DNA of 22,325 nt, from IMG/VR virus record IMGVR_UViG_3300024974_000019, positions 1 through 22,325 of that record; one strand, written 5' to 3'. This document shows, in pieces, positions 13,892-16,314 of this stretch. Positions within the stretch are counted from its first letter, which is position 1; each line of letters starts with the position of its first letter. The notes beneath the pieces were generated by a model. The model was given only the letters and a program-made list of their open reading frames with translations, did not search any database and was not told the origin of the DNA. This DNA comes from a virus. The position numbers and the translations under genes are program-made.

Positions 13892-14248
13892 CTATAACAG
13901 CACGCTGGCGATCACCGCCTTCGCCAGGTCCTTGATCACCGAAAACGACAAATCCACGCCCCGCGTTTGCGCGGTCGCCTTGACCTGCCGCCAGATCGAA
14001 TCGTTTTTGATCTTATCCAAAAACTCATGCCCTTCCCACGTCAATCGGTTGGCGTGGCAAAACGGCGGACCCAAGGCGTCGCGGCAACCGCCGACGATCA
14101 ATTGCGCTTCCAGCATCAGGCGCATGTGGTAAGCGACGGTTTCGGCATCCGTGCCGGCCAGCTCGGCCGAATTGAAGGTGCTGTCTTCGGTCGGCAGCGC
14201 TTCGACGGCGATTAAAATTTTTCTGATGACGTCCCAGTTACGCTGCAT
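13892..14248 (-). CDS. DUF2513 family protein
   Basis: Predicted 118-residue protein of the DUF2513 family: the opening MQRNWDVIRKILIAVEALP, the central HMRLMLEAQLIVG, and LTWEGHEFLDKIKNDSIW followed by a VKAT...GVDLS helix are the usual order. The family is small, found in phages and mobile elements, and looks like a winged-helix fold; its biochemical role is not established. The gene overlaps the preceding 97-residue gene by 11 bases and is followed by a 274-bp gap, so the two may form an accessory unit inserted between head morphogenesis and scaffold genes. A regulatory role is a guess. Confidence 0.75.
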   Translation of the reverse strand: MQRNWDVIRKILIAVEALPTEDSTFNSAELAGTDAETVAYHMRLMLEAQLIVGGCRDALGPPFCHANRLTWEGHEFLDKIKNDSIWRQVKATAQTRGVDLSFSVIKDLAKAVIASVLL

Positions 14249-14531
14249 GTTGCGCCTTCGACTTTTCGATCACATTGGCGCACAGCCGCAGAATAAGCAC
14301 ATCGTCGTCCTGCTCGTCCTCGTAACGCGCGGCGGCCAACTCCAAGACGCGGCGATCCGCCTCCGCCAGCAACGCGCGCTGAGCTGCCGTCAAGCTGTCG
14401 ATGTGCGCCTGCAAAAATTCGCGGTGTCCCAAAAAGACATGCGAATCGCCGGCGCCGAGCTCCCAGTATTGCACATCAATCGAATAACTTTTTAAACTGT
14501 CCGCCAACGCCTGGCTCGATGTCGTATTCAT
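14238..14531 (-). CDS. Unknown 97-residue protein overlapping head-nuclease gene
   Basis: Predicted 97-residue soluble, acidic, mostly helical protein with no recognised family. The first part (about 12-40) has SYSIDVQYWELGAGDSHVFL, the second is a helix ending in ARYEDEQDDDVLILRLCANV. Its ATG starts 56 bases inside the end of the head morphogenesis gene, so the two are probably translated together. Because that upstream protein ends in a nuclease-like domain, an inhibitor (immunity) role is conceivable, but nothing in the sequence proves it. The local base composition is lower in GC than in the surrounding head genes. Confidence 0.65.
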   Translation of the reverse strand: MNTTSSQALADSLKSYSIDVQYWELGAGDSHVFLGHREFLQAHIDSLTAAQRALLAEADRRVLELAAARYEDEQDDDVLILRLCANVIEKSKAQHAA

Positions 14532-16026
14532 ACACAGTATGTCCCAATCGGGTTTGTATCGATTTAAACGTCTCCGCGTTCGCCTCGTGCTGATAGGCTG
14601 TTTTGATCAAGCCGTCATGATTCAAGATCACCGACCAATCGCCGGCGATCAATTCCATTGATGAATGCTTGCCGTTGACCAAATGCAGCCGGGTGGACGC
14701 TGCCAAGGCGCCCTTTATTTTGTCGAAATAATCCTGCTCATTGCGCACGTGGCCTTTTTCGATCCGCTTCGCAATGTGTTTGCTGTGGCTCGATGTATTG
14801 GTCCACAAATCGACGAGCGCCGGGTTATTGTTCGCTCTTTCCGCCAATTTTTCAACGATATTTTCGATGGTATTCCGGTTCAATAAATCGATCGCGGAAG
14901 CCTTGGTCAACAACCCCATGCCGTCCGCCCGCATCAGCCGCTCCATCGGCACCCCGGACGACATGGCTTCCTGCGCCCATTTCGGCAACAACTGCTCCCG
15001 CCGCTCCGGCGCAACGCCCCGGATAAATTCCGCGTAATTTTGCGAGCCTTTGTGCCGGATCGGGGTCGCGCGCGGGATCAGCAGGCACATGCAGTGCGGG
15101 TGGGCCTTGTGGCGCGGCACGGTTTCTTTCGTGAACACGCCCTTGCCCAGGCCCATTTCGATATTCGCGTAATAATCGCAAATGTCCGGGCGCGGATGGC
15201 TGGCGGATAATCGCCACTGGTAGCCGATGATCCCATCGTTGCTCTTCGTGTCGTCGATCACGGCCCGGTGGCCGGCGGTCGCCATTTCGGTGCGGGCGAT
15301 GCGCTTTAAATGATAGAGCTGCTTGTCGTAGATCCACCAATGCACCGCCTTGGCGGCCATGTCGGCGTTGCCTTGCTTGACCGCCTCGCGCATTTTATCG
15401 AACAAGCGCTCGGCGGCGCCGCGCGTGCCGGCCACTTCGAGCTGGTCGATGTGCTTTTTGATGTCGGCGACCGTCGCCGCCCATTGCGTCTTGGCTTTCG
15501 GATCATGAATGAGGGTCTGCGCCGACTGCCACAATTCGGTCACCCAGTCTTCGCGGTACTTTTCGACGATCTTGAATTTCTCGCCGCCGGCCGCGCGCTC
15601 GATTTGGCGCTGCATGGCGTAAATCGTCTGGTTCGCGCTCTTGCCCTGGCGGATGGCGTCGCGCAATACGTTGGTCAGGCCGGCGCGGGTTTCCTTGTCC
15701 CAGCTCCATAGCCGCTTGGACAGCGTCAACCCGTCCGGCCAGCGCTCGTTGAATGCCGCCTCGGCGGCGGCCGATACGGCCGCGCTTTGCAGGCTGCCCA
15801 CGGCCATCGTCGCGATCGCGGCTTCGATCGCGGGCCGGATCGCGGCCTGCGCTGTGCTCAGGTAGGCGGAAAGCTCCTGCTCGGCTTCGGGGCCGATCTG
15901 CCAGCCTTCGGCCTGGAGCTTGGCGATCAGCCGGGCGACGAAAGCCTGCGCATCGCCGGCGAGCTTGCCGTCATGCTTAAGGATTTCCTCGGCCAGGCGG
16001 CGATAGAGTTCGGGATAGCCGGCCAT
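14476..16026 (-). CDS. Head morphogenesis protein with C-terminal RNase-like domain
   Basis: Predicted 516-residue minor head protein of the SPP1 gp7/Mu F type, injected or internal to the head, placed after the portal as usual. Residues 1-245 are helical. Around 270-315 lies the conserved core with SHPRPDICDYYAN and a C-terminal HPHCMC (309-314) that ends the standard domain. About 380-516 is an extra module: SSHSKHIAKRIEKG (412-425), DYFDKIKGAL, and DWSVILNHDGLIKTAYQHE (463-481). This order resembles BECR-fold (barnase/EndoU/ColicinE5/RelE) RNases reported at the ends of phage head proteins. Histidines 414 and 417 and the TAYQHE stretch are plausible active-site parts. The module's DNA is poorer in GC (about 50% at 14521-14820) than the core (about 62% at 15601-15720). 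Confidence 0.85.
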   Translation of the reverse strand: MAGYPELYRRLAEEILKHDGKLAGDAQAFVARLIAKLQAEGWQIGPEAEQELSAYLSTAQAAIRPAIEAAIATMAVGSLQSAAVSAAAEAAFNERWPDGLTLSKRLWSWDKETRAGLTNVLRDAIRQGKSANQTIYAMQRQIERAAGGEKFKIVEKYREDWVTELWQSAQTLIHDPKAKTQWAATVADIKKHIDQLEVAGTRGAAERLFDKMREAVKQGNADMAAKAVHWWIYDKQLYHLKRIARTEMATAGHRAVIDDTKSNDGIIGYQWRLSASHPRPDICDYYANIEMGLGKGVFTKETVPRHKAHPHCMCLLIPRATPIRHKGSQNYAEFIRGVAPERREQLLPKWAQEAMSSGVPMERLMRADGMGLLTKASAIDLLNRNTIENIVEKLAERANNNPALVDLWTNTSSHSKHIAKRIEKGHVRNEQDYFDKIKGALAASTRLHLVNGKHSSMELIAGDWSVILNHDGLIKTAYQHEANAETFKSIQTRLGHTVYEYDIEPGVGGQFKKLFD

Positions 16027-16029
16027 GGA

Positions 16030-16314
16030 CTAATAGCTGTTGTAATTGCCGCAATTCGGGCAGAAATGGCCTTCCCGCGTGATGTAGAACAACTGGTTGC
16101 CGCAATGGCATTCCCATACCTCACCGGCCGGGGCGAAATCGTAGCGCAGCCGTCCCGTCATGGTTTGGCATTGTGGACATTCCAGTAGAATATCGCAGAC
16201 TCTTTTGCCAGCTTGCACTACGGCCTGCCATTCGTGCCGGCATTGCAGACAGAACGCCTCGCCTTGAGCGGTCGGTTGCTCCGGCGCAGGAAACAGCGAG
16301 ACCACGTTCGTCAT
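16030..16314 (-). CDS. Zinc-ribbon protein
   Basis: Predicted 94-residue small protein with four cysteine clusters: CLQC (22-25), CPQC (46-49), CHCG (69-72) and CPNC (85-88), the pattern of two zinc ribbons. The C-terminal half (VWECHCGNQLFYITREGHF) is a compact ribbon. No membrane segment or signal peptide. It lies between the portal and head morphogenesis genes and starts with an ATG overlapping the portal stop (ATGA). Zinc-ribbon proteins are frequent in phages as nucleic-acid-binding or regulatory factors. I do not recognise a family, and this position inside the head module is unusual. Confidence 0.8.
   Translation of the reverse strand: MTNVVSLFPAPEQPTAQGEAFCLQCRHEWQAVVQAGKRVCDILLECPQCQTMTGRLRYDFAPAGEVWECHCGNQLFYITREGHFCPNCGNYNSY

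What the first reader, a model, noticed from the sequence alone, without database searches (positions are those of the whole stretch)
14476..14900. RNase-like (BECR) module at the end of the head morphogenesis protein
Beyond the standard head-protein core (ending near HPHCMC, residues 309-314) the protein has about 135 extra residues with SKHIAKRI, DYFDKIKGAL and DWSVILNHDGLIKTAY, the order seen in BECR-fold RNases (PBECR-type, as described for phage head proteins, and related contact-toxin tips). Base composition falls from about 62% GC in the core to about 50% in the module (hand counts), which fits separate acquisition. A head protein with a toxin tail could be delivered with the DNA and act on host RNA or on rival elements.
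Basis: partly seen in the sequence, partly recalled or inferred. Interest (0 to 1): 0.62.

Follow-up and report, generated by a model that had tools for sequence, protein, structure and literature searches.

The report
Phage head protein carrying swappable toxin
The end of this phage head protein is a removable toxin domain, very probably an RNA-cutting one, followed by an overlapping small gene that looks like its antidote, so the phage may carry a toxin in its head and inject it together with its DNA.

Summary
The tail is real and separable (residues 376-516, 14476-14901, minus strand; 48.5% GC against 64.1% for the core). The closest relative, L032, is 85% identical in DNA over 5.1 kb but stops matching just before the tail, which it lacks.

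Relatives with the same tail have a homologous, overlapping gene. Among 38 non-redundant head genes, 18 of 18 long-tailed ones are followed by an overlapping small ORF, and 0 of 20 tailless ones (p = 3e-11). Several unrelated tails occupy the same slot. In cultured phages NrS-1 and NrS-3, about 90% DNA identity breaks exactly around tail plus small gene. The pair also stands alone in methanotroph chromosomes.

This is the signature of MuF polymorphic toxins with immunity genes, a known kind; the toxin-immunity family is undescribed in the libraries searched.

The BECR RNase reading is plausible but unproven. A confident AlphaFold2 model has an invariant His in the first core helix and an invariant Thr in strand 4, as PBECR requires. 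Foldseek finds no significant match, and the profile match to PBECR3 is only suggestive. Toxicity, RNase activity and delivery are untested.

The parts
14902..16026 (-). MuF-type head morphogenesis core, residues 1-375 (HPHCMC at 309-314, then a hinge also found in tailless relatives)
   Evidence: phrog_1657 E 3.4e-35, also a match to the MuF part of phrog_16625 (Bxa) E 1.3e-8; conserved in short and long relatives
14476..14901 (-). C-terminal toxin-like domain, residues 376-516 plus stop; invariant W408, H417, R421, Y433, W464, G472, T476, F487 across eight tails
   Evidence: AlphaFold2 pLDDT 90.8, pTM 0.86; alignments A2, A3, A6; absent from closest relative L032; GC 48.5%
14238..14531 (-). 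Candidate cognate immunity gene, 97 aa, acidic (pI 4.85), predicted four-helix bundle, overlaps the toxin 3' end by 56 nt
   Evidence: Homologues with the same overlap next to L036, L040, L054, L024, NrS-1 (L021) tails and next to stand-alone tails L087, L115; AlphaFold2 pLDDT 88.6; 18/18 against 0/20 association

Best explanation
Residues 376-516 are the exchangeable toxin domain of a MuF-type polymorphic toxin carried on a phage head protein, and the overlapping 97-aa gene is its cognate immunity gene. The toxin is most likely a metal-independent endoribonuclease of the BECR class, using H417 (with R421) on the first core helix and T476 on strand 4. The head domain would place a few copies in the capsid near the portal, to be injected with the DNA into the next cell, where the domain cuts RNA and slows or kills a cell lacking the immunity protein; the producing cell and lysogens are protected. 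Shown here by comparison: modularity, cassette exchange, strict pairing with the small gene, conserved candidate residues. Inferred: toxicity and immunity (about 0.9), BECR RNase (about 0.65), delivery in the capsid (about 0.7).
For: Closest relative L032: 85% DNA identity over 5.1 kb ending about residue 369; tail and small gene absent there, similarity resumes in the scaffold gene. 18/18 long-tailed head genes have an overlapping ORF of 60 aa or more, 0/20 short ones, Fisher p = 3e-11. At least six unrelated tail types on the same core, two with HExxH-type peptidase motifs. Tail type A is scattered on the core tree: 4 changes for 4 rows, at least 3 forced by strongly supported branches; the window pairs with tailless L032 at 100/100. 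NrS-1 and NrS-3: 87-90% DNA identity stops at the tail start and resumes after the small gene. Stand-alone toxin-immunity pair with the same overlap in chromosomes of G141, G356, G869. Tail and immunity homologues co-occur in every type A locus. AlphaFold2: H36-48 with H42, four strands, T101 in the fourth, the PBECR definition of PMC5512222. Best profile alignment pairs H42 with the invariant His of PBECR3, 0 of 200 column shuffles as good; NrS-1 tail reaches PBECR3 at E = 0.071.
Against: Foldseek found no BECR structure in PDB or BFVD at E <= 1e-3. No curated family is reached above cut-off. The PBECR2 comparison gave nothing, although known PBECR3 against PBECR2 also fails by this method, so it has little power. 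No toxicity, RNase activity, binding or virion location is measured. The predicted immunity fold matches nothing informative.
Confidence: 0.72

Rival explanations
1. Same toxin-immunity system, but the toxin is not BECR: a new fold or another catalytic class acting on another target.
For: No significant fold or sequence match to any BECR structure or family despite a confident model.
Against: Order of secondary structure and position of invariant His and Thr match PBECR; suggestive in-register match to PBECR3.
Confidence: 0.25
2. The tail is a structural or packaging extension of the head protein and the small gene a chaperone or structural partner, with no toxic function.
For: It is fused to a head protein; no activity is measured; PMC5512222 says phage Mu's own MuF-C domain is an inactive PBECR.
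Against: Close relatives do without it; the slot holds unrelated domains, some peptidase-like; strict pairing with an overlapping small gene; the pair exists with no phage head gene nearby.
Confidence: 0.06
3. The pair serves the lysogen rather than the virion: a toxin-antitoxin or superinfection-exclusion module that happens to be fused to the head gene.
For: Stand-alone chromosomal copies keep the overlapping pair, and the remnant in L116 keeps an intact immunity gene beside a truncated toxin.
Against: Phage copies are fused in frame to a head protein made late in infection, as in published MuF toxins (PMC5576092), which suits delivery better than lysogen maintenance.
Confidence: 0.12

Closest known systems
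MuF polymorphic toxins (Jamet et al. 2017, PMC5576092)
   Same: MuF head protein next to portal and terminase genes with a variable C-terminal toxin and a following ORF under 150 aa; short forms without toxin in relatives.
   Different: Described mainly for Firmicutes; C-terminal extensions in Proteobacteria were left without known domains. This tail and immunity family matches none of the libraries searched. Here the pairing is 18/18 and the genes overlap.
Bxa of Bacteroides stercoris and Apk2 toxins (PMC11699363, PMC12226406)
   Same: MuF-type delivery domain plus C-terminal toxin with adjacent immunity; the window core matches phrog_16625, named Bxa ADP-ribosyl transferase, over the MuF part only.
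   Different: Those toxins are an ADP-ribosyltransferase and (p)ppApp synthetases; this tail resembles neither.
PBECR3 (PF18812), phage BECR-like RNase family
   Same: Invariant helix His, helix 2 beginning D-Y/F, Thr or Ser in the last core strand; occurs fused to MuF-like proteins (L101).
   Different: No E-value below threshold; Pfam best 0.071 for the NrS-1 tail; the HGxxxxExxRGQ loop of PBECR3 is absent.
Nitratiruptor phages NrS-1, NrS-2, NrS-3 head morphogenesis protein
   Same: Same tail in a cultured, inducible temperate siphovirus, with the overlapping 84-aa partner in NrS-1.
   Different: Only 25-28% identical; annotated as head morphogenesis protein and hypothetical protein in the records. 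NrS-3 carries a diverged tail and a different partner.

Membership tests
MuF polymorphic toxin | N-terminal MuF or head-morphogenesis domain encoded beside portal and terminase genes | tested here: met
   phrog_1657 E 3.4e-35; portal phrog_145 E 3.3e-47 upstream; Pfam PF04233 itself only 13.5 bits, below cut-off
MuF polymorphic toxin | Variable C-terminal domains on a conserved core, including tailless forms | tested here: met
   At least six tail types and 23 short forms in the tree set
MuF polymorphic toxin | Small downstream ORF specific to toxin-bearing forms | tested here: met
   18/18 long, 0/20 short
MuF polymorphic toxin | Toxin-immunity cassette shared with other contexts | tested here: met
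   Stand-alone pairs in G141, G356, G869; no other delivery domain found
MuF polymorphic toxin | Toxic activity neutralised by the immunity protein | not testable with these tools
   Needs expression experiments
[quoted passage not shown]
   H36-48, H55-68, E71-75, E81-86, E89-93, E99-104, later E123-127; an extra N-terminal helix 3-25 precedes them
PBECR / BECR endoribonuclease | His in N-terminal helix and Ser/Thr in strand 4 | tested here: met
   H42 and T101 invariant in eight tails, in helix 36-48 and strand 99-104
PBECR / BECR endoribonuclease | Significant structural match to a BECR protein | tested here: not met
   Foldseek PDB and BFVD, none at E <= 1e-3
PBECR3 (PF18812) | Score above the family's curated cut-off or significant profile match | tested here: inconclusive
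   Best 13.5 bits against cut-off 30, so not filed as a member; hhalign E 0.027, 0/200 shuffles as good; the accepted sister pair PBECR3-PBECR2 also fails
PBECR / BECR endoribonuclease | RNA cleavage | not testable with these tools
   Needs biochemistry

The most novel reading that the evidence does not exclude
The tail is a toxin of a new fold or catalytic class, only superficially BECR-like, paired with a new four-helix immunity family, and exchanged between phage heads of methanotroph and vent bacteria and their chromosomes.
Probability: 0.25. Interest if true: 0.6.

Novelty: new member of a known kind. Interest (0 to 1): 0.42.

Why it matters
Jamet et al. (PMC5576092) left open whether C-terminal extensions of proteobacterial MuF proteins are toxins. 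In this lineage, extension and overlapping small gene come and go together without exception (18/18 against 0/20), which is strong genetic support for a toxin role. The pair also occurs in NrS-1, a cultured, mitomycin C-inducible phage, so delivery of a MuF toxin in the virion could be tested directly. The exact cassette boundaries and stand-alone chromosomal pairs show how phage heads pick up and exchange such cargo.

Tried and rejected
Tail alone against viral contigs, and the four-tail alignment against genome contigs: no relatives. Tail and immunity against plasmids: none. Profiles A2, A6, A7 against PDB sequences: nothing meaningful; the RNase III hits at E about 0.3 were rejected as chance. 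PADLOC: no convincing hit. hhalign against PBECR2: no match, but the method also fails between PBECR2 and PBECR3. PBECR1 (PF18809): no examples found to compare. An early profile match to PBECR3 was doubted because the reversed profile scored 16.1 against 17.8; with more sequences the gap widened to 18.2 against 12.4, still only suggestive. Considered and rejected: tail as an ordinary head domain (closest relative lacks it); small ORF as a chance overlap (conserved in sequence and position).

Full report
Observation. The ORF at 16026-14476 on the minus strand encodes 516 residues. Residues 1-375 belong to a head morphogenesis protein of MuF type (phrog_1657, E 3.4e-35), beside a portal gene (phrog_145). 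HPHCMC at 309-314 is followed by about 60 residues of hinge that tailless relatives share, so the separable module is residues 376-516 (14476-14901). Its GC content is 48.5%, against 64.1% in the core and 60.6% in the window.

Presence and absence. The nearest relative, L032, is 85% identical in DNA over 5.1 kb (through portal and core) and stops matching at about residue 369; its head protein ends soon after, and similarity resumes only in the scaffold gene. On a tree of 39 cores the window pairs with L032 at 100/100, while the four type A tails on the tree need four changes, at least three of them forced by strongly supported branches. The tail therefore moves independently of the core. The anomalous GC suggests gain in the window rather than loss in L032, but this is inference.

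The partner gene. A 97-aa ORF (14238-14531) begins inside the last 56 bases of the tail gene. Homologues sit next to every type A tail found, with overlaps of 56-62 bases; the diverged tail of NrS-3 (L022) has a different partner. In a non-redundant set that includes the window, 18 of 18 head genes with a long tail had an ORF of at least 60 aa starting within 90 bases before to 6 bases after the end of their stop codon; 0 of 20 without a tail did (p = 3e-11). The other tails are unrelated to this one by sequence and have their own partners: type B (L028, L046, L051), C (L029, L031, L048), D and E (L060; L076, L077, L081; HExxH-type peptidase motifs by eye, no Pfam support for D), F (L084, L085). 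The window's partner is acidic (pI 4.85) and predicted as a four-helix bundle (pLDDT 88.6).

Cassette exchange. Nitratiruptor phages NrS-1 and NrS-3 are 87-90% identical in DNA up to the tail start and again from just after the small gene; the segment between differs. NrS-1 is a cultured, inducible temperate siphovirus (PMC9723563). The same pair, without a head gene, occurs in chromosomes of G141 (no phage genes seen by eye in the 15 kb around it), G356 and G869. In G787 a remnant lacks the head core and the toxin's first half, including the candidate His, yet keeps the partner, beside intact scaffold and capsid genes. G141, G356, G869 and G787 were drawn from the same order, which also holds a Methylobacter genome, so methanotroph hosts are likely for this phage group. 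The window's own host is not known.

What the toxin does. From only four sequences AlphaFold2 gave pLDDT 90.8 and pTM 0.86: after an N-terminal helix 3-25, helix 36-48, helix 55-68, strands 71-75, 81-86, 89-93, 99-104, helix 112-118, strand 123-127. Invariant residues across eight tails include H42 and R46 in helix 36-48 and T101 in the fourth strand. PMC5512222 defines PBECR by an N-terminal helix with His, four or five strands and Ser/Thr in strand 4, and notes MuF fusions. The order fits. Foldseek did not recognise it in PDB or viral models, and sequence profiles fall short of any family. The best lead is PBECR3: the profile alignment sets H42 on its invariant His, with a score above all 200 column-shuffled controls, and the NrS-1 tail reaches PBECR3 at E 0.071 over the matching region. 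I therefore say it probably works like a BECR RNase (0.65) without filing it as a PBECR member.

Mechanism. [quoted passage not shown] The producing cell needs the partner for protection. Effects could be growth arrest of competitors or a bias of the lysis-lysogeny choice, both proposed in PMC5576092; nothing here separates them.

Novelty. The kind is known: MuF polymorphic toxins with immunity ORFs, including tested examples (Bxa, Apk2). The toxin and immunity families are absent from the libraries searched, so this is a new family of a known kind.

Noticed in passing
L020:139-1095 (IMGVR_UViG_3300013233_000732): The head protein is interrupted by a 319-aa intein between HPH and CMC of the conserved HPHCMC motif (Pfam Intein_splicing E 5e-12); L006 from the same sample lacks it.
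   Followed up: partly
L029, L031, L048 and L084, L085: Two further tail types with no Pfam match (type C with a 109-117 aa partner containing WWWHLGKIR; type F with a 98-107 aa partner) look like additional undescribed toxin-immunity pairs.
   Followed up: partly
L116:3618-4185 (minus): Prophage remnant in which the toxin's first half, with the candidate catalytic His, is missing while the immunity gene stays intact beside scaffold and capsid genes.
   Followed up: partly
L109:7327-7833 and L115:4864-5523: Stand-alone toxin copies share a short upstream stretch (DSLYHLKRFGEFGTMPRMD in G869, DPLYRLRRVGDIMPAMDD in G141) not found in phage copies; its role is unknown.
   Followed up: no
L115:3402-4448 (minus): A Rha-type phage regulatory gene (Phage_pRha E 6e-27) lies directly after the stand-alone toxin-immunity pair, hinting at a phage origin of that site.
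   Followed up: no
window 13892-14248: A DUF2513 gene (E 7.7e-28) overlaps the end of the immunity gene by 11 bases.
   Followed up: no
window 16030-16314: A 94-aa protein with several CxxC pairs (zinc-ribbon-like) lies between the portal and head genes; NrS-1 and NrS-3 have a small hypothetical gene in front of their head gene too.
   Followed up: no
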